Assembly (NCBI GenBank): GCA_019456305.1 | Contig: VRUD01000024.1 | Location: 1-43,852, forward strand | DNA: 43,852 nt | From: Cytophagales bacterium | GTDB taxonomy: Bacteria > Bacteroidota > Bacteroidia > Cytophagales > VRUD01 | Direction: 5' to 3' | Shown here: in pieces, positions 10,214 through 39,763 of the stretch | Layout of the letters: each line of letters begins with the position of its first letter | Numbering within the stretch: position 1 is the first letter of the stretch | Position numbers and translations under genes: made by a program | Notes under the pieces: generated by a model | Databases searched by the model: none | What the model was told of the DNA's origin: nothing | The model's input: the letters and a program-made list of their open reading frames with translations, nothing else

Positions 10214-10294
10214 AGTCGGCAATCTACAGTCCCCAGTCGGCAAAAAACAATTGCCGACTGCCGGCTGCCGACTGGAGACTGCCGACTGCCGACT
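10214..10294. repeat. GTCGGCA palindromic repeat, copy A
   Basis: Tandem GTCGGCA/TGCCGAC words with a 10-bp hairpin CAGTCGGCAA/TTGCCGACTG (10234-10260). Bases 10214-10260 are an exact 47-base reverse complement of 39717-39763. It fills the space between the TPR gene and the OstA-like gene. Confidence 0.9.
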
Positions 10295-13597: not shown

Positions 13598-13845
13598 TTC
13601 AATAAGTTGGCAAAATGCAGTTGGCAGTTGGCAAATCTTCCCCCGCCTTTGGCGAGGGAGTTTTTTGCCAACTGCCTATTGCCAACTGCCAACTTGAAAA
13701 GGCCAACTGCCAACTGTTTTTATAATTACTATCAACCAATATTTAGAATAGAGCCAACTATAATTATGGCAGGCAGTTTTCGGGATTTAGCGGTCTAATT
13801 GCCAACTGCCTTTTGCTCCCGCCTGAGGCGGGACCAACTTTTTCA
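13598..13845. repeat. GTTGGCA repeat cluster between rpoZ and coaBC
   Basis: Repeated TGGCAGTTGGCA words and their complements TGCCAACTGCCAA, with the GC-rich hairpins CCCGCCTTTGGCGAGGG and CCCGCCTGAGGCGGG embedded. The last copy runs up to four bases before the coaBC start. The 332-base gap 13517-13848 holds nothing else that can be supported; reading frames here are made of repeat sequence. Confidence 0.85.
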
Positions 13846-23476: not shown

Positions 23477-23559
23477 GACCTGGTTGCTATCGGGAGAAAT
23501 TCTAAAAAGGAATATCAACGTAGTTTCGAGGCAGAGTTTATAAGATCATCAAAATAATA
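23477..23559 (+). repeat. 83-bp direct repeat, copy 2 (left edge of the defence island)
   Basis: Near-exact copy of 22289-22371. After AAAATAATA the sequence departs from copy 1 and the inserted island begins. The 514-base gap 23472-23985 also holds the hairpin at 23567, an attC-like structure and the R-M promoter, but no supported gene. Confidence 0.92.
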
Positions 23560-23566
23560 TACCATT

Positions 23567-23610
23567 TTATGGTTGTAATCCACCCAAAAATGACTGTATT
23601 ACAACCATAA
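23567..23610. other. hairpin at the left edge of the defence island
   Basis: Perfect 13-bp arms TTATGGTTGTAAT (23567-23579) and ATTACAACCATAA (23598-23610), within a further ATACC/GGTAT outer match. It lies 8 bases after the island junction and could be an element end or a terminator. Confidence 0.5.
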
Positions 23611-23795
23611 CGTGGTATCCATAAACAAGTTACCTACAATAGCCCGCCTAAAAACTGACATGTTTAAAAATAGGGTGAATCATTAACAGTTGGACACAAA
23701 AGTTGTTAATAGAAACGTCAACAGTTCTTTGACAAGTACGTGGATTGAAAAAAAATTAAAAAAGCCCGCCCTCAGAGATTTTTATTTAATCTTCT

Positions 23796-23905
23796 GCCAA
23801 CACTCAGCAAGCACATTCAAATTTTGCTTTGAGAGTATTTATTTTTCAAGGTAAAGCAAAATTTGAAAGAGCTTGTTTTTGCAAACGCACAAAAAAATGT
23901 TGAAA
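23796..23905. other. attC-like structure 0 (weak)
   Basis: Long imperfect hairpin: CAAGC (23808-23812) and TTCAAATTTTGCTTT (23816-23830) pair with AAAGCAAAATTTGAA (23853-23867) and GCTTG (23871-23875). It is preceded by GCCAAC and followed by GTTGAAA (23899-23905). The GTTGAAA box would pair at 6 of 7 positions with GTTCAAC at 28145-28151, which is expected if both belong to one integron cassette. Confidence 0.4.
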
Positions 23906-23922
23906 ACTTTTTAAAATAATCC

Positions 23923-23953
23923 ATTGACATTTTACAAATCTGTAGTATTTTTG
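23923..23953 (+). promoter_or_regulatory. promoter of the R-M operon
   Basis: ATTG (23923-23926), a 19-base spacer and TATTTTTG (23946-23953). This differs from the Bacteroidota consensus only in the first base of the -33 element. It lies 33 bases before the regulator ATG. Confidence 0.5.
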
Positions 23954-23967
23954 ACAAAATTTGACAA
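23950..23967 (+). promoter_or_regulatory. candidate operator for the R-M controller
   Basis: Direct repeat TTTGACAA at 23950-23957 and 23960-23967, one helical turn apart, overlapping the end of the promoter. XRE-type R-M controllers bind such paired sites to regulate their own operon. A further TTTGACAA is at about 23724-23731. Confidence 0.4.
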
Positions 23968-23985
23968 GTCATTATCAAGCAAGAC

Positions 23986-24321
23986 ATGGTAACTATAAAT
24001 TCAATAACGGAAATAGGTCAATATCTCAGAAACAGAAGAACAAAAAAAGGCCTAAGATTATTTGATGTGGCAAAGGGAACTGATATTGACACTACAATGT
24101 TGAGTAAGATAGAAAGAGGCGAACGTCTTCCGACATTTGAACAAGTTAAACGAATTGCTGATTTTTTTGGAATTTCTGAGAAAACCCTCAGAATTCAAGT
24201 GACAGCGAAAAAAATAATCAAAGAATATGGGCTTAATGAAACAACCCTAAACGCTGTTAAACTTGTTAAGGAACAAGTTATTCCTTATCTAAAAAAAAAG
24301 AAAAATGAAAAAACTGGTTAA
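23986..24321 (+). CDS. XRE-family regulator of the R-M system
   Basis: 111 residues. A helix-turn-helix of the XRE/Cro type covers about residues 9-64: IGQYLRNRRTKKGLRLFDVAKGTDIDTTMLSKIERGERLPTF, with the recognition helix at TMLSKIERGE. The C-terminal 45 residues are helical and Lys-rich, longer than the classic C-proteins of R-M systems. It overlaps the methyltransferase start by 17 bases, so the two are translationally coupled. Control of methylase or endonuclease timing is inferred from context and from the TTTGACAA repeats in front. Confidence 0.8.
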   Translation: MVTINSITEIGQYLRNRRTKKGLRLFDVAKGTDIDTTMLSKIERGERLPTFEQVKRIADFFGISEKTLRIQVTAKKIIKEYGLNETTLNAVKLVKEQVIPYLKKKKNEKTG

Positions 24322-25141
24322 AGACAACATAGAATTATGTTTGCAAGAGGCTTTGGAGGGAATGTCAAAATATCCTGATAATTCCTTTGACATGGCTATT
24401 TGCGACCCTCCTTATGGTGCATCAACAAGGGCATCTTGGAAGTACGACAGAGAGAAAAAACTCAATGGGTTTGGCGGGAACTGGAATCTCGCTAATCACG
24501 ATTGGGATTTGCTGACAGGTAACGAAATTTTCGCATTCGCTTATCAATGGCTTTCAGAACTCAAACGACTTGTTAAACCGACCGGTTCGATATGGATTCA
24601 CTCCACTTACCATAATTCCGGTTTCGTTAATGTAATTTGCCAATTGCTTGAATTAGAAATAATCAATGAGGTTGTATGGTACAAGCGAAACGCTTTCCCA
24701 AATCTTGCTAGAAGACGACTAACCGCAAGCCATGAAACAATCCTTTGGGTACACACCGGAGGCAATAAACGTCAATATACTTTTAATTATGAAGATGTAA
24801 AACAGGTACGTTTCAAGGGAGACAACCTAAAGGAACCCGGAAAGCAACTCAGAACAGTTTGGGACATCCCGAATAACAAAAACAAGAATGAAATAGCTTT
24901 CGGCAATCATCCCACACAGAAACCATTAAGATTATCAGACCGATTACTAATGATTTCAGGAACCAAAGGCGGTAAACTTCTCGTGCCTTTTGCAGGTTCA
25001 GGAACAGAACTGATTGCAGGGCTGAAATACGGTATGGAAGTCGTTGGCTTTGAAACAAATCAGGAATATATTGACCTTGCTGAAAAACGATTGAACGAAT
25101 ATCTGGAAGTCACGAAAAGCCAATTAGTATTAGAATGTTGA
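24305..25141 (+). CDS. DNA adenine-N6 methyltransferase (beta class)
   Basis: 278 residues. The catalytic motif IV DPPY is at residues 34-37 and comes before the AdoMet-binding motif I PFAGSGTE (228-235); HPTQKPL precedes motif I (202-208). This order is that of beta-class (permuted) methyltransferases, and DPPY fits N6-adenine. The target-recognition part lies between (about 40-195), including VVWYKRNAFPNLARRRLTASHETILWV. It overlaps the regulator by 17 bases and the second methyltransferase by 7 bases (25135-25141), forming a tight operon. Two methyltransferases in one system usually mean an asymmetric site with one enzyme per strand. Confidence 0.9.
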   Translation: MKKLVKDNIELCLQEALEGMSKYPDNSFDMAICDPPYGASTRASWKYDREKKLNGFGGNWNLANHDWDLLTGNEIFAFAYQWLSELKRLVKPTGSIWIHSTYHNSGFVNVICQLLELEIINEVVWYKRNAFPNLARRRLTASHETILWVHTGGNKRQYTFNYEDVKQVRFKGDNLKEPGKQLRTVWDIPNNKNKNEIAFGNHPTQKPLRLSDRLLMISGTKGGKLLVPFAGSGTELIAGLKYGMEVVGFETNQEYIDLAEKRLNEYLEVTKSQLVLEC

Positions 25142-26022
25142 AACCAAATTCCAAAGTCGAGGCGGTAATAAAATGGTCAGGCAGCAAGCGACAAGTCGCC
25201 CCCCAAATAGGCCGTTTAATCCCTAAAGTCACCAAAAGGTACTTTGAACCGTTTATCGGAAGTGGTGCTATGCTGCCATTCCGCAAAGCACAGGTAGGCA
25301 TTGCTGGGGATATCATTACCGAACTCGTTGACCTTTGGAATACTATAAAAAACGAACCTGAAAAAACTGCCATAGAATATCTACAGCGTTGGAGCAGATT
25401 GCAAGCAGAAGGTTATCAGGTTTACTATGAAGTGAGGGACTCTTTCAATGCGATGAGAAATCCTCACGATTTTCTTTTTCTTACGAGAACCTGCGTCAAT
25501 GGCCTTATTAGGTTCAATTCAAATGGCGACTTCAATAATTCATTTCATTTAAGCAGACCCGGTATAAATCCGGAAAAACTGAAAGAGATAATATTTAAAT
25601 GGCATTATTTCATCCAAGACGTTACTTTTCAAAACACCGATTACCGAACCACCCTTGACAGTGTGGAAAAGGATGATTTCATTTTTCTTGACCCTCCCTA
25701 TGGTGGAACCAAAGGCCGATACACGAAAGACGAATTTTGTCTTGATTCCTTTTTCAATGAATTGCAACGGCTCAATTCGCTTGGGGCTAACTGGATTCTC
25801 ACATTTGACGGAGTTGCCGGAGAAAGAGAATATGATTACAAGTTACCGGAGGAACTTTACGAAAACAAAGTGTTAATTAAGACAGGCAACTCACCGTTTA
25901 CTAAAATGATGAAAACAAACATAGATGCGGTGTACGAATCAGTGTATCTTAACTTCAATCCCCCCACTAAACTGCTCGGCAATTTTCATCAAGAGGTTAG
26001 CAAAGAACCCACAATGTTTTGA
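25135..26022 (+). CDS. DNA adenine-N6 methyltransferase (D12/Dam class)
   Basis: 295 residues. D12-class motifs in alpha order: motif X KWSGSKR (13-19), motif I FEPFIGSGAM (37-46) and motif IV DPPY (186-189), followed by Y-G-G. The region between, with FLFLTRTCVNGLIRFNSNGDFNNSF, is the class-typical segment holding the recognition domain. The class differs from its neighbour (beta), so the two arose independently and were brought together. Its 3' end overlaps the 3' end of the endonuclease gene on the other strand by 84 bases. Confidence 0.92.
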   Translation: MLKPNSKVEAVIKWSGSKRQVAPQIGRLIPKVTKRYFEPFIGSGAMLPFRKAQVGIAGDIITELVDLWNTIKNEPEKTAIEYLQRWSRLQAEGYQVYYEVRDSFNAMRNPHDFLFLTRTCVNGLIRFNSNGDFNNSFHLSRPGINPEKLKEIIFKWHYFIQDVTFQNTDYRTTLDSVEKDDFIFLDPPYGGTKGRYTKDEFCLDSFFNELQRLNSLGANWILTFDGVAGEREYDYKLPEELYENKVLIKTGNSPFTKMMKTNIDAVYESVYLNFNPPTKLLGNFHQEVSKEPTMF

Positions 26023-27915
26023 AGTTTTCAGGTGAAGTATTGACACTTCCTTTTCACCTTTGAACTCCAGAGCAATTGCAATGTCCAATTTTCCTTTTTT
26101 CATTGCGGCCACTAACTGGCTATCATCACCGTAGCAAAACGCACCAGCAGAAAACGATTGGAACTTCTTTACTGGTGCTGCACTATCAGTATAAGCCCTC
26201 CATTCCCCATTTAATGACCTGTAGGCATTTGGCTGGCTGCACAGAATATCCTTTAAAAACATATTTAGACGAGTGCCTACATCTTTTTCCAAATCCCTTG
26301 ATACGTTCTTTGATTCCATCGCGATATAAATCTCATCGCCATCGTAAAGCTGTATGGCACAATCAGGACGTTTCCTGTTAGAACCGGAAACTCTGGGCAA
26401 AGAAGTCCACTTATATTCCTGCTTCTTAACCTTATCGAAAACCAGTATACCACTCCAATCGCCACCAGGAGGATTGCACATTGCCTCATATATCCCATGC
26501 TTTTCTTGATGTGAAAAGAGAACATGCAACACAGTATCAACATCATATTCCGAAAAGTGATTGGGGACATTATTGGAAATCGGAATTGAAATTTTCTTGG
26601 TTCTCTTTTTAAATGCTCTTTCCTCGATATGATAGAGAGGCCCATGCTTGGAAGTAGTACTGTCCGCAAAGACCATGTTGCTCAAATTCAATATCGCCTC
26701 CCACAAACCGTTGGTTTCTGCTAATCTCGCAGGGTTTGTCTTGAAAGTATCCCAAGTGCTTTTTATCGCAGGGCCGGAAACAATCGTCAGAATTTTGATG
26801 TCATTACCGAAAACCATTCGCGCCAATGGCACCAATCCCCGGTCAGGTCGCGAATCATCCCCTCTTGGCTTGAAACCCGTAATCCAAACCACAACCAACG
26901 GTTCTTTAAGCACTTTCAATTCGTTAATGAAATCACCCACATCTTTACCATAGATGGTCTTAAATATCTTCACAAATTCACGTAATTCATCTTTAGATAT
27001 TAGGCATATCGGAATCTCCTTAGCGCCAATCGAAATGCAATCAATCTTTTTGATTTTTCCTGACAGCTTGTCAAAATTCCGTGTAACATTAACCTTCCCC
27101 GACCGCTTGCGCTTCCATTTCTGCACCACATCGTCAGTTGCAAGCCATTCCGCTCTGTCTTTGCCAGTCACAGCATCAAGGAACTCATCCCATTGTTTCC
27201 CTTTAAGTGTATCAATTCGCTTCCGTTCTTTTGCAAGTATTCTTACCAACGAAAGCCCTTTTTTCTTCAATGCCTCAAATGCATCGGAATGATTGTTTCC
27301 ATCAATGATTGCTTTCAGCAATACCAAGCTATCTTCAAGGCCAAAGACCAGCTGGAATTTATTTCGTAAATCTTCTGTAATAGCTGGATGCGCTTCATAA
27401 ACCGGAAGGCATACCACATCGAGAGATACACTTGCAGACAAGTAAGAAAACGGAACAATCGGATTTGGGAACCTTGGTGCTTTTACAACCCTATTCTCGT
27501 CCAGTTCTACACCTCCAACCTCTGCATAGTAGAAATACGGGATTCCCAATTCCGCACAAGTAACTGCTCTACCACTTCTTTGCCAGGCATTGTTACCAGC
27601 AGGAAGTGCGTTACAATATTCAATAGCGAGAACAATTTCCTCATTTCCGTCTACTTCTTTTGTAATGTAGGCATCGGTGGCTTCCCGGATTGGCGCTTTT
27701 TCCAAAGTTAGTGCACTTTGGATACTTGTTCCCCATCTCCCATGTCCCGAATAAAGCGTTGCATCAAACTTAGCATTGCCGCTTACATTAACCCGAAACT
27801 GAGGACAATACAAATTATCCGAAATCCTCTCCACAGTAGCACCATACGCTCTTACAATAAGTTCTAAAGTGCGTTCGCACTCAATGATATTGTCACCGTG
27901 AATTCTGAGTTTCAT
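25939..27915 (-). CDS. large type II restriction endonuclease
   Basis: 658 residues from the ATG at 27915; an upstream in-frame ATG at 27966 adds 17 Cys/Phe-rich residues that do not look native. Near the C-terminus a PD-(D/E)xK site is visible: RPDC at about 516-519 and MESKN at 533-537, with strand-like residues between. A second candidate nuclease region lies near the N-terminus: FDATLYSG (about 50-57), then LAIEYCNALPAGNNAWQRSGRA (about 96-117). A middle segment reads GFKPRGDDSRPDRGLVPLARM (about 347-367). It converges with two methyltransferases, so it is the endonuclease of the system. One polypeptide with two cutting centres, as in some type IIS enzymes, is an inference. I cannot name its recognition site. 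Confidence 0.75.
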   Translation of the reverse strand: MKLRIHGDNIIECERTLELIVRAYGATVERISDNLYCPQFRVNVSGNAKFDATLYSGHGRWGTSIQSALTLEKAPIREATDAYITKEVDGNEEIVLAIEYCNALPAGNNAWQRSGRAVTCAELGIPYFYYAEVGGVELDENRVVKAPRFPNPIVPFSYLSASVSLDVVCLPVYEAHPAITEDLRNKFQLVFGLEDSLVLLKAIIDGNNHSDAFEALKKKGLSLVRILAKERKRIDTLKGKQWDEFLDAVTGKDRAEWLATDDVVQKWKRKRSGKVNVTRNFDKLSGKIKKIDCISIGAKEIPICLISKDELREFVKIFKTIYGKDVGDFINELKVLKEPLVVVWITGFKPRGDDSRPDRGLVPLARMVFGNDIKILTIVSGPAIKSTWDTFKTNPARLAETNGLWEAILNLSNMVFADSTTSKHGPLYHIEERAFKKRTKKISIPISNNVPNHFSEYDVDTVLHVLFSHQEKHGIYEAMCNPPGGDWSGILVFDKVKKQEYKWTSLPRVSGSNRKRPDCAIQLYDGDEIYIAMESKNVSRDLEKDVGTRLNMFLKDILCSQPNAYRSLNGEWRAYTDSAAPVKKFQSFSAGAFCYGDDSQLVAAMKKGKLDIAIALEFKGEKEVSILHLKTSKHCGFFANLLMKIAEQFSGGIEVKIH

Positions 27916-28144
27916 TGATTTTCTACCGAATAAACACCTAAAAAAGCACCCGGCAAAAGTAGTCATTATATTAGGGAATTAATCATCCCTGTTTTGCCTA
28001 TATGCTGCGCTTTTGCACGGAAAATCGTTGCATCACTGTTTATTCAATGATTTATCCTTATTTTCTGCTGATTTTTACTTACCGCTTCTCAATTCTTAAA
28101 CATTGCTTTCCCATAAGCATAAGCGTTGGTGCTCAGGCGGTTCC

Positions 28145-28238
28145 GTTCAACTCAATTTTATCCGCAATTTATGCTTACTTTGCCACTCTGAATTATATTT
28201 TTTTGCGTAAATTGCGGATAAAATCCTAAATGTTAGGG
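28145..28238. other. attC-like site 1
   Basis: GTTCAAC (28145-28151, a perfect RYYYAAC box), then arms ATTTTATCCGCAATTTA (28155-28171) and TAAATTGCGGATAAAAT (28208-28224), a perfect 17-bp stem, then GTTAGGG (28232-28238; GTTRRRY with the last base wrong). Overall plan, length (94 bases) and boxes fit an integron attC site. The 314-base gap 27916-28229 between the endonuclease gene and this cassette holds only this site and AT-rich sequence. Confidence 0.55.
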
Positions 28239-28256
28239 GCAATAATAAAAAGACAG

Positions 28257-29213
28257 ATGACAACAATGACGACAAAAAAGAAATCGACAAAAATACCACC
28301 TAAGACAGAGGCGGAAGTAATGTTTAAATCGAACTTACAATGTTGTGTTTGCCAAAAAAAAGGCGACCATATTCACCATTTGGACAGTGTTAGAACTAAC
28401 AACGACTTTGACAACCTTGCTTTACTATGCTTTAAACATCATAATTTTGCGACAATTAAAGGAAGCTTGAGTAAAAAACTTTCTCGACAAGCAATAATCA
28501 AATTTAGAGAACATCATTATCAAGTCATCGAAAACGAAAGACAAAAAACGCTTGGGGCACTTAATAATCCAATCATAGAATTGAACGAAGAAGCCCTTTT
28601 GACAGCATCAAAAAATGCAATAATCATAATAGAAATTGAAAAAATAAAAGAAGAATACTTCAGTGCAAATTGGGACAAAAGAGAAAAAATAATAGGACAA
28701 CTGAATAAATTTTCCAACCATTCTAATTTCCGGATAGCATTTGAGGTTTTTGAATTTCTCTCAGAAGCCGCAGGTCAGACAAGAGGGGGAATGACATATA
28801 ATATGGCAACTTCCATTTTTGGTACTGCCCTTGACTTCTCTCCTTCATTACACGATGAAGAAAAAAGAGAACAAGCAATCCAAATTGCAAAACAATGTAT
28901 TCATATCGGAGACAACATTGCTTATGACGCTTTTATTCATTTACGGAATTTGGCAGTAGCAATGTGGGGGTTGACTATAATCAAATTTATTTATCGTAAA
29001 GCAAAGGAAAATAATATTCAAGAATTGAAGGACGAAATTAATCGTACCTACAAAGAATTAGAAGCAACACTTCGCAGACCTGAAAGAACTGATTTAGAAA
29101 ATGCACAGGAAATGCTTAAAGTGTTTAAGGACGACCTAGACGAATGGAGTTTGAGTTTTCCTCCTCTACCAAATCGTCTAATGAAAATTATTGACACAGA
29201 CAATAAAAAATAG
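28257..29213 (+). CDS. HNH-motif protein (candidate nuclease of a defence pair)
   Basis: 318 residues from the ATG at 28257; the ATG at 28230 is part of the attC-like box and was rejected. The N-terminus has an HNH/zinc module: CCVCQ (about 29-33), DHIHHLD (about 37-43), the N-x-x-x-LALLC stretch and CFKHHN (about 59-64). That is, two CxxC/CxxH zinc pairs around an H-H centre, typical of HNH nucleases. The remaining 240 residues are helical with no recognised domain, apart from repeated acidic and basic helices that resemble TPR or HEAT arrays. It is followed after 5 bases by an unknown gene, so the two are probably one unit. Confidence 0.7.
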   Translation: MTTMTTKKKSTKIPPKTEAEVMFKSNLQCCVCQKKGDHIHHLDSVRTNNDFDNLALLCFKHHNFATIKGSLSKKLSRQAIIKFREHHYQVIENERQKTLGALNNPIIELNEEALLTASKNAIIIIEIEKIKEEYFSANWDKREKIIGQLNKFSNHSNFRIAFEVFEFLSEAAGQTRGGMTYNMATSIFGTALDFSPSLHDEEKREQAIQIAKQCIHIGDNIAYDAFIHLRNLAVAMWGLTIIKFIYRKAKENNIQELKDEINRTYKELEATLRRPERTDLENAQEMLKVFKDDLDEWSLSFPPLPNRLMKIIDTDNKK

Positions 29214-29218
29214 AAACT

Positions 29219-30007
29219 ATGACAAAATTTACAATCGGAGCATACGAATTAGAACAAGCAACCGCGACTAACTTTGCCGACATTATCTCAATCATTAAAG
29301 GTCGCTCAATCGTTTCTGGTGCGGACTGGGAACAAGGCGACAGATTTGAATTAGGGCTTAGCGGAAATTTAATGCTTCGCTTTTTTCGGACTGACACGAA
29401 TATGACTGTGAATTTGATTAGCACAAGAAACAAAGATGAAAATCCCACACTTGTAATTGATATGGGAGATATGGGACAGAGAGTTCCAATTTCCGTAATT
29501 GAAACCAAACTGAATGGTTTAAGGACACTTTATGCAATCTACTTTCTCATACACAACGACAGAGCACAAGAATTACAATCATATTTAATTCAGCATCCAC
29601 AAGGAGACATTGAGAAAGCACTTTTAAAAGAAGATGAGCAACTTTACATTGAAAGCATTTCGTACGGTTCGTGGATTTTGACAGTTTGGGGAAAAACAAA
29701 AAAAGCATACAAAGCAATTGTATCAACTGCTGGACTTGTATTTGTGCGTGGACGAGAAGCATTTTTGAGCAAACTTGAGGCGGACTCTCGATTAAAAAAT
29801 GCAGAAGCTGATTTAAAAACGGTTGAAGTTAAAGACAAACAATTTGAACTACATAAAAAACAGTTTGACTATTTACTTGAAGCAAGTGAAAAAATGGACA
29901 TTCCAGAAGTAAAAAAACAATTAAAACGCAGAATGATTCAAGCGACAAAAAATTTTACTCTCGGGGACAAGAGCGACAGCGATTCATTCAGACAACTTGA
30001 AGAATAA
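29219..30007 (+). CDS. unknown partner protein of the HNH gene
   Basis: 262 residues, not recognised. The N-terminal half (1-130) is mixed alpha/beta. Residues about 141-180 (LYIESISYGSWILTVWGKTKKAYKAI...) include a short hydrophobic stretch that might touch a membrane. Residues about 180-235 form a charged coiled coil (LSKLEADSRLKNAEADLKTVE...). The tail is acidic. It is linked to the HNH gene by a 5-base gap, and both lie within one cassette-like unit (28233-30140). A role in phage defence or DNA handling is inferred only from position. Confidence 0.6.
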   Translation: MTKFTIGAYELEQATATNFADIISIIKGRSIVSGADWEQGDRFELGLSGNLMLRFFRTDTNMTVNLISTRNKDENPTLVIDMGDMGQRVPISVIETKLNGLRTLYAIYFLIHNDRAQELQSYLIQHPQGDIEKALLKEDEQLYIESISYGSWILTVWGKTKKAYKAIVSTAGLVFVRGREAFLSKLEADSRLKNAEADLKTVEVKDKQFELHKKQFDYLLEASEKMDIPEVKKQLKRRMIQATKNFTLGDKSDSDSFRQLEE

Positions 30008-30015
30008 ATTACTGC

Positions 30016-30146
30016 CCCTAACAGCGCATATATTTCATCGCGGTTGACGAGAATATTCATACCTTAGCGTTTTCAATAATCGGTTGGTTTCTGAGACGGT
30101 GACGTAGTTCTCAAACCGCAACGAAACATATGCGCGGCCGTTCAAT
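30016..30146. other. attC-like site 2
   Basis: CCCTAAC (30016-30022), stem GCGCATATATTTC (30024-30036) against GAAACATATGCGC (30123-30135, one mismatch), further CGCGGTT/AACCGC and GAGAA/TTCTC pairing inwards, then GTTCAAT (30140-30146). CCCTAAC is the exact complement of the GTTAGGG that opens the cassette at 28232. The match extends to 11 bases (TGTTAGGGGCA at 28231-28241 and TGCCCCTAACA at 30013-30023), as expected for the two ends of one integron cassette. Confidence 0.6.
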
Positions 30147-30192
30147 GTTTTATTTAAACCAGGGATTTGGTCCATTTTTTGACATAATCCCC

Positions 30193-30231
30193 AATAATAA
30201 TATGAGACCTAAAATGGTAAAATTCTCTAAA
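30193..30231 (+). repeat. 5' fragment of a second desaturase copy (right edge of the island)
   Basis: 39 bases matching 22365-22403: AATAATAATATGAGACCTAAAA and on through the tenth codon, with four substitutions. The frame then ends within a few codons. It marks the right junction of the island. AATAATA at this edge and at the left edge (23553-23559) could be a short target duplication. Confidence 0.85.
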
Positions 30232-39681: not shown

Positions 39682-39763
39682 TAGTCGGCAGTTAGCAGTC
39701 GGCAATCGGCAGTCAGCAGTCGGCAATTGTTTTTTGCCGACTGGGGACTGTAGATTGCCGACT
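39682..39763. repeat. GTCGGCA palindromic repeat, copy B
   Basis: Inverted relative of 10214-10294. Bases 39717-39763 are the exact reverse complement of 10214-10260 (47 of 47). Located between higA and tRNA-Val; the gap 39561-39770 shows nothing else. Confidence 0.92.

What the first reader, a model, noticed from the sequence alone, without database searches (positions are those of the whole stretch)
23899..30146. R-M system and HNH pair look like two integron cassettes without an integrase
Three long imperfect hairpins (23796-23905, 28145-28238, 30016-30146) carry RYYYAAC-like and GTTRRRY-like boxes. The decisive sign is box matching across each unit, as integron cassettes require. GTTAGGG at 28232 is the exact complement of CCCTAAC at 30016 (11 bases overall), and GTTGAAA at 23899 matches GTTCAAC at 28145 at 6 of 7 bases. 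Unit 1 (about 4.3 kb) would hold the R-M system, unit 2 (about 1.9 kb) the HNH pair. Such arrays without an integrase are known as CALINs, and R-M systems are known as cassette contents.
Basis: partly seen in the sequence, partly recalled or inferred. Interest (0 to 1): 0.8.

Follow-up and report, generated by a model that had tools for sequence, protein, structure and literature searches.

The report
Bacteroidota integron-like gene cassette
The HNH gene pair in this window sits in a mobile gene cassette of a widespread integron-like system in Bacteroidota bacteria, whose enzyme lacks the part thought to define integron integrases; the system stores phage-defence and immunity genes, and appears to be hardly described.

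Summary
Unit 2 (28232-30139) is a real integron-type cassette: its ends, GTTAGGGGCAATAAT and ATTACTGCCCCTAAC, are complementary, and it closes with a 128-bp folded site (30012-30139) found about 20 times in the genome stretches read and in 73 of 395 Bacteroidota genomes searched. Hairpins 1 and 2 do not match this site. Hairpin 1 is a leader element inside cassettes; the R-M unit begins at an attI-like junction at 23629, not 23899; its own end site is missing or unrecognised.

In relatives these sites form one-stranded arrays beside a tyrosine recombinase (17 of 28 genomes within 25 kb; 0.6 expected). Neighbouring sites obey a strict rule: 9 bp of start/end complementarity, a fixed mismatch at position 11, then 3 bp (40 of 47 pairs). 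One genome has five identical 124-bp cassettes inserted at G|TT before five different cassettes. The recombinases are XerA-like and lack the ~42-residue IntI insertion. The gut rAID array examined obeys the same rule. This genome holds only C-terminal fragments of that recombinase, one 1.2 kb beyond the window. Recombination is inferred; none was tested. Priority was checked only in an open-access library.

The parts
28232..30139 (+). Gene cassette (unit 2): begins G|TTAGGGGCAATAAT, ends ATTACTGCCCCTAAC plus folded site; about 1.9 kb
   Evidence: ends complementary with the 9 + mismatch-at-11 + 3 signature; end site 95 bits
30012..30139 (+). attC-like recombination site of the Bacteroidota type (R'' box GCCCCTAAC 30014-30022)
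   Evidence: dispersed family in own genome whose similarity stops at the boxes; 26 pairs, 12 with compensatory changes; R2 95.2 bits
30140..30148 (+). R' box GTTCAATGT = right junction; runs into a gene leader that recurs uninterrupted elsewhere in the genome
   Evidence: copy at C3:39659 begins GTTCAATGTTTTATTTAAAC
28257..29213 (+). cassette gene 1: HNH-type protein, 318 aa from this ATG (ORF list gives 28230, a start that would straddle the junction)
   Evidence: weak PADLOC matches to HNH endonuclease models, E about 0.002; no Pfam hit
29219..30007 (+). cassette gene 2: 262-aa protein of unknown function
   Evidence: no family hit
23559..23629 (+). hairpin plus attI-like junction TATCCATAAACAA|GTT
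   Evidence: second copy at C68 is followed by a different start, GTTATAAACAATAG; resembles attI-like junctions next to intact integrases and in C9
23629..28231 (+). R-M unit: starts GTTACCTACAATAGCCC; its 3' end site is missing or unrecognised
   Evidence: the start is shared with the complete R-M cassette at C9:8271-4721; no matching R'' in the window
23808..23875 (+). hairpin 1: cassette-internal leader element before the control-protein gene, not an attC site
   Evidence: copies in C9, C21 and C23 in the leader before defence or HTH genes, in C9 and C21 about 200 bp after the cassette start; no R2 hit
23986..24321 (+). HTH control protein of the R-M system
   Evidence: Pfam HTH_3, PADLOC HTH_VI
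24305..25141 (+). N6/N4 DNA methyltransferase
   Evidence: Pfam PF01555
25135..26022 (+). D12-class N6-adenine DNA methyltransferase
   Evidence: Pfam PF02086
25939..27966 (-). type II restriction endonuclease
   Evidence: PADLOC PDLC03434 REase_II, E 1e-117
28149..28231 (+). hairpin 2 (AAC-TCA-20-bp stem-CCTAAAT-GTT): attC-like geometry but no homologue and no model hit; role undetermined

Best explanation
The HNH pair is a gene cassette of a Bacteroidota integron-like system. Shown by sequence: arrays of about 60-160 bp folded sites lie on one strand beside a XerA-like tyrosine recombinase. Each cassette starts G|TT (A|TT in the rAID array examined), and its first 9 bases are complementary to the box just before its own folded site. 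Position 11 is always mismatched. Stem mismatches are mostly A.C on the top strand, which are G.T wobbles on the bottom strand. Inferred: the recombinase binds the folded bottom strand of the site, cuts at G|TT and inserts circular cassettes at attI (next to its own gene), after other sites, or at secondary GTT targets. The window's genome keeps cassettes, attI-like junctions and integrase C-termini but no intact integrase of this type, so its cassettes are probably stranded. Unit 1, the R-M system, entered the same locus at an attI-like junction at 23629 and now has no recognisable end site.
For: Site family with covariation and boundaries at the boxes; R2 95 bits at 30012-30139. 73 of 395 Bacteroidota genomes have R1 hits. 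Sites lie within 25 kb of the integrase in 17 of 28 genomes, 0.6 expected, P about 2e-22. Sites share the integrase's strand in nearly all named co-directional loci, and none of 36 non-Bacteroidota loci with related integrases has a site. Adjacent boxes: 40 of 47 pairs match at 5 or more of 6 variable bases (2.5 expected; 0 of 20,000 permutations); position 11 matches in 0 of 40, positions 12-14 in 80-93%; same signature in an independent set. Five identical 124-bp cassettes sit at five different junctions in G096, one of them attI. attI-like motif 54-160 bp from the integrase in most arrays. C24 and C42 share integrase fragment and attI, then diverge exactly at GTTAT. Bottom strand more stable in 94 of 129 sites; 207 vs 36 mismatches favour it. 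In own stretches 7 of 17 rule pairs end exactly at a site.
Against: No recombination assay. In the window's own genome only 12 of 20 sites are more stable on the bottom strand (p 0.48). The site model was started from this genome's own repeats, although R2 was trained on other genomes. HNH-gene relatives in other genomes had no site nearby, so the same cassette was not seen elsewhere. The R-M/HNH locus has only one confirmed site.
Confidence: 0.88

Rival explanations
1. Classical IntI integron remnant (CALIN), from an IntI carrier, with three ordinary attC sites.
For: Same cassette logic: boxes, G|TT, bottom-strand bias. IntI1 groups with one array integrase in the tree. Bacteroidetes In0 and one complete integron are reported (PMC9024848).
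Against: All array integrases measured have 64-69 residues between the KGxKDR and HxLRH motifs, against 106 in IntI1; TIGR02249 scores of 192-212 lie below the 265 cut-off. Class 1 attC sites do not match R2, and the class 1 cassettes inspected lack the fixed mismatch at 11. Two of the three hairpins are not sites.
Confidence: 0.06
2. Dispersed hairpin repeats (MITE- or REP-like elements) spread by a transposase, with no cassettes.
For: The genome is full of palindromic repeats, and hairpin 3 is a dispersed family.
Against: Cassette start/end complementarity, single strandedness, co-localisation with the integrase and exact G|TT junctions with different genes are not expected of MITEs.
Confidence: 0.03
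3. The window's cassettes are moved by the chromosomal XerC/XerD proteins (IMEX-like use of dif), not by a dedicated integrase.
For: XerC- and XerD-like genes are the only intact tyrosine recombinases found in this genome.
Against: Arrays in relatives sit by a distinct integrase that separates from this genome's Xer proteins with full support. The sites are folded, cassette-specific hairpins rather than 28-bp dif sites.
Confidence: 0.05

Closest known systems
Integrons with IntI integrase and attC sites (class 1; Vibrio sedentary integrons)
   Same: cassette arrays on one strand, folded sites with GTT/AAC boxes, start/end complementarity, attI beside the integrase, inferred bottom-strand use, gene-less and single-gene cassettes
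   Different: the integrase lacks the ~42-residue IntI insertion described as essential for integron function (PMC8138268, citing MacDonald 2006); fixed mismatch at box position 11; strand bias through A.C/G.T pairs; array lies 5' of the integrase in some genomes and 3' in others; the sites do not resemble class 1 attC sites
CALIN (clusters of attC sites lacking an integrase)
   Same: cassettes without an intact integrase in this genome
   Different: only one confirmed site at the R-M/HNH locus (two, 1 kb apart, at C24:48014-49257), and the sites are not of the IntI type
rAID, recombinase-associated acquired interbacterial defence arrays of gut Bacteroidales (PMC12247911; Ross 2019 not held)
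   Same: tyrosine recombinase plus co-oriented short cassettes; all 7 units of a Parabacteroides distasonis array obey the same end-complementarity rule
   Different: A|TT instead of G|TT junctions, ~60-nt sites, immunity genes as content; no R2 hit
VchIntIA/IntI4 (PDB 2A3V), XerA (PDB 5HXY) and XerH folds
   Same: the array integrase model matches XerA (Z 24), XerH and IntI4 (Z about 21.5)
   Different: phmmer aligns IntI4 in two blocks: 65 IntI residues against 22 here between them
Cassette insertion at secondary chromosomal sites (attG), as described for classical integrons (own knowledge; reports not read)
   Same: single cassettes scattered over many contigs, one joined to a gene leader at GTT
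   Different: different integrase and site type; target rule not measured here

Membership tests
IntI integron / CALIN | folded sites with R''/R' boxes (AAC ... GTT) | tested here: met
   site 30012-30139 and about 19 more in the genome stretches read; not met by hairpin 1; hairpin 2 undetermined
IntI integron / CALIN | start of a cassette complementary to the box before its own site | tested here: met
   unit 2 in the window; 40 of 47 adjacent pairs in named genomes
IntI integron / CALIN | integrase with the IntI-specific insertion | tested here: not met
   none in the own genome; array integrases in relatives lack it
IntI integron / CALIN | integrase, attI and array side by side | tested here: met
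   relatives and plasmids; own genome only fragments
IntI integron / CALIN | hit to the standard attC models (IntegronFinder, HattCI) | not testable with these tools
   programs not available
IntI integron / CALIN | recombination of the folded bottom strand | tested here: inconclusive
   energy and mismatch bias only; no assay
CALIN | at least two sites close together without an integrase | tested here: not met
   only one confirmed site at the R-M/HNH locus; two sites 1 kb apart at C24:48014-49257
rAID | tyrosine recombinase, array of short co-oriented genes, conserved intergenic motif | tested here: not met
   the window locus has no recombinase and carries R-M and HNH genes; conversely the rAID array L306 obeys the cassette rule
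XerA-like tyrosine recombinases (NF040815) | array integrases score at the curated cut-off of 220 bits | tested here: inconclusive
   seven array integrases score 198-225

The most novel reading that the evidence does not exclude
Bacteroidota carry their own integron-like system: a XerA-type integrase without the IntI insertion, folded sites whose strand is chosen by A.C/G.T pairs and a fixed box mismatch, present on chromosomes and plasmids. Gut rAID arrays are a specialised branch of it, and it stores phage-defence modules such as R-M systems. This would mean that the insertion thought essential for integron recombination is not needed for it.
Probability: 0.8. Interest if true: 0.87.

Novelty: new variant of a known kind. 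Interest (0 to 1): 0.8.

Why it matters
Integrons were thought to be nearly absent from Bacteroidetes: a large survey reports only In0 elements and one complete integron there (PMC9024848). Here about a fifth of the 395 sampled genomes carry the sites. If real, it gives a mechanism for the unexplained assembly of rAID immunity arrays (PMC12247911 calls their biogenesis an open question), shows that defence systems travel as cassettes in a phylum rich in gut and environmental bacteria, and makes a long-held view testable: that IntI needs its extra insertion to act on folded single-stranded sites.

Tried and rejected
GTTGAAA at 23899 as the start of unit 1: fails the 9-bp rule. Hairpins 1 and 2 as sites: no hit with filters off. 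A match to hairpin 2's box elsewhere in 22-28.1 kb: none convincing. HNH-pair relatives in other genomes: only weak homologues, none with a site; the first genome-contig scan for gene 2 found nothing. Rfam: no family at the hairpins. Closing box for the R-M unit (start GTTACCTACAATAG): not found to 34 kb. tet(X3)-tnpF plasmid pHH1107: no cassette signature around tet(X3). Long start/end complementarity as a unique mark: rejected, because class 1 cassettes also show more than 7 bp; only the fixed mismatch differs. Monophyly of array integrases: not supported. The structural list is a re-ranking and was not used to exclude any family.
Full report
OBSERVATION. The three hairpins are present. The match at the two ends of unit 2 is exact over 11 bases and 94% complementary over 16 (TGTTAGGGGCAATAAT at 28231-28246, ATTACTGCCCCTAACA at 30008-30023). 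The match claimed for unit 1 is weak: against the 9-bp box rule found below, GTTGAAAAC vs GTTGAACGG agrees at 6 bases. Hairpins as such are cheap in this genome, 123 of them in about 0.44 Mb.

THE REAL SITE. Hairpin 3 belongs to a family dispersed over the genome (C65, C22, C17, C6, C1, C21, C92, C4 and others). Similarity between copies stops at the AAC box on the left and just before GTT on the right, while flanks differ. Ten copies share one stem of 26 pairs, 12 of them with compensatory changes. A covariance model (R1) finds the sites in 73 of 395 Bacteroidota genomes. A second model (R2), trained on 52 sites from other genomes, scores the window site at 95.2 bits and gives no hit to hairpins 1 or 2 even with filters off. 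In about 0.65 Mb of the same genome it finds about 19 more sites.

THE RECOMBINASE. Integron-integrase and phage-integrase searches of the own genome give two intact proteins, XerC-like (C41) and XerD (C15), and four C-terminal fragments (C6, C9, C24:45083, C42). The C6 fragment finds relatives in 66 of 198 genomes. In genomes with both, sites lie within 25 kb of such an integrase in 17 of 28, where 0.6 is expected (P about 2e-22 under a uniform model). Examples: G104 has nine sites on one strand over 19 kb, ending 0.5 kb from a divergent 280-aa integrase; Algibacter onchidii has ten, Flavobacterium enshiense about twelve and Arundinibacter roseus six, on the integrase's strand downstream of it. 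None of 36 non-Bacteroidota loci with related integrases has a site. Plasmids carry arrays too: Chryseobacterium sp. SNU WT5, Rufibacter tibetensis (shorter sites) and Flagellimonas marinaquae.

CASSETTE RULE. For neighbouring sites, the sequence after one site (cassette start) was compared with the reverse complement of the box before the next (cassette end). In the named genomes 40 of 47 pairs agree at 5 or 6 of the 6 variable bases, 2.5 expected, 0 of 20,000 permutations as good. Among those 40, positions 1-9 agree in 95-100%, position 11 in 0%, positions 12-14 in 80-93%. An independent set gives the same profile. The window cassette fits: GTTAGGGGC, then A/A, then A/G, then TAA/TAA. In other stretches of the own genome 7 of 17 rule pairs end exactly at a site, including the PIN-domain cassette on the window's contig (C24:48141-49130) and a 3.4-kb cassette in C9 with a complete PstI-type R-M system. 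Class 1 integron cassettes also have long end complementarity but, in the few inspected, no fixed mismatch at 11, and their attC sites do not match R2.

MOBILITY. In G096 a gene-less 124-bp cassette occurs five times, all identical, each between a different site (once attI) and a different cassette, always joined at G|TT. In the own genome, C24 and C42 carry the same integrase C-terminus and attI-like sequence, then diverge exactly at GTTAT into different cassettes. First cassettes start 54-160 bp from the integrase in most arrays, after a motif resembling GNATATAACGA|GTT. The junctions at C9:8271 and window 23629 resemble it.

STRAND. Of 130 sites, the bottom strand folds more stably in 94 (p 2e-7). 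Mismatches in the outer stem favour the bottom strand 207 to 36, mostly A.C on top, which are G.T wobbles below. In the own genome alone the energy bias is not significant (12 of 20).

MEMBERSHIP. The array integrases are XerA/IntI-like, but the stretch between KGxKDR and HxLRH is 64-69 residues against 106 in IntI1. PDB 2A3V aligns only in two blocks, TIGR02249 scores stay below the cut-off, and the AlphaFold2 model (pLDDT 80) has no helix there. A survey of tyrosine recombinases describes that insertion as essential for integron function though not fully conserved in the integron-like subgroup (PMC8138268). The tree does not make array integrases one clade, and the place of IntI1 is unsure because of its long branch. 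So it works like an integron, but it is not filed as an IntI integron.

rAID. A Parabacteroides distasonis array next to such an integrase, with SMI1/KNR4 and Tdi1-type immunity genes, obeys the rule in all seven units (8 of 8 at positions 2-9), with A|TT junctions and ~60-nt sites. rAID is described by its tyrosine recombinase, co-oriented short genes and conserved intergenic motifs, with its biogenesis unresolved (PMC12247911). The founding paper was not in the library; whether it already drew the integron parallel could not be checked.

THE WINDOW LOCUS. From left to right: a hairpin plus attI-like junction (23559-23629; second copy at C68 before a different start); an R-M unit starting GTTACCTACAATAGCCC; hairpin 1, a leader element found at a similar place in other cassettes; control protein, two methyltransferases and a convergent endonuclease; hairpin 2, unexplained; the HNH cassette; its site; then a gene leader that recurs uninterrupted elsewhere. 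The R-M unit probably lost its end site.

LIMITS. No experiment. The own genome is a draft in 159 contigs and was read only in part. The literature library is open access only; searches found no description of this system.

Noticed in passing
L045:1140-5405 (same contig, about 1.2-5.4 kb right of the window): Integrase C-terminal fragment, attI-like junction, a cassette with an AbiU2-type HEPN gene plus a 607-aa gene, and a PIN-domain cassette, closed by two attC-like sites.
   Followed up: yes
L054:4721-8597: Complete cassette with a BsuBI/PstI-type R-M system behind an integrase fragment and attI-like junction.
   Followed up: yes
L047:12858-15349: Rule-conforming cassette holding a Dam-type methyltransferase and a DGQHR (DndB-like) gene by eye; possible modification/defence cassette.
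   Followed up: partly
L303:6037-8058: TnpF/XerD-like integrase beside tet(X3) on pHH1107 groups with the Arundinibacter array integrase, which hints that this resistance region descends from a Bacteroidota cassette platform; no cassette signature was found around tet(X3).
   Followed up: partly
L305:9887-10725: On the Flagellimonas marinaquae plasmid two attC-like sites flank a dihydrofolate-reductase-family gene next to erm(F) and the integrase.
   Followed up: partly
window 30140-30202: Leader GTTCAATGTTTTATTTAAACCAGGGATTTGGTCC...TGACATAATCCCC recurs before at least seven other genes of this genome; possibly a shared regulatory leader.
   Followed up: partly
window 13605-13801, 10214-10294, 39697-39763: Dense short repeats (GTTGGCA/TGCCAAC and AGTCGGCA types) that also occur in many other contigs; a different dispersed repeat family.
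   Followed up: no
attC-like loops, e.g. window 30043-30070: Many loops hold TAnnTTTG-like sequences resembling a Bacteroidota -7 promoter element; sites may also drive the next cassette. Untested.
   Followed up: no
L206 (four copies of GTTGTGGCGAATTGCCTTCG...): A second short cassette-like element repeated at four junctions of one array.
   Followed up: partly
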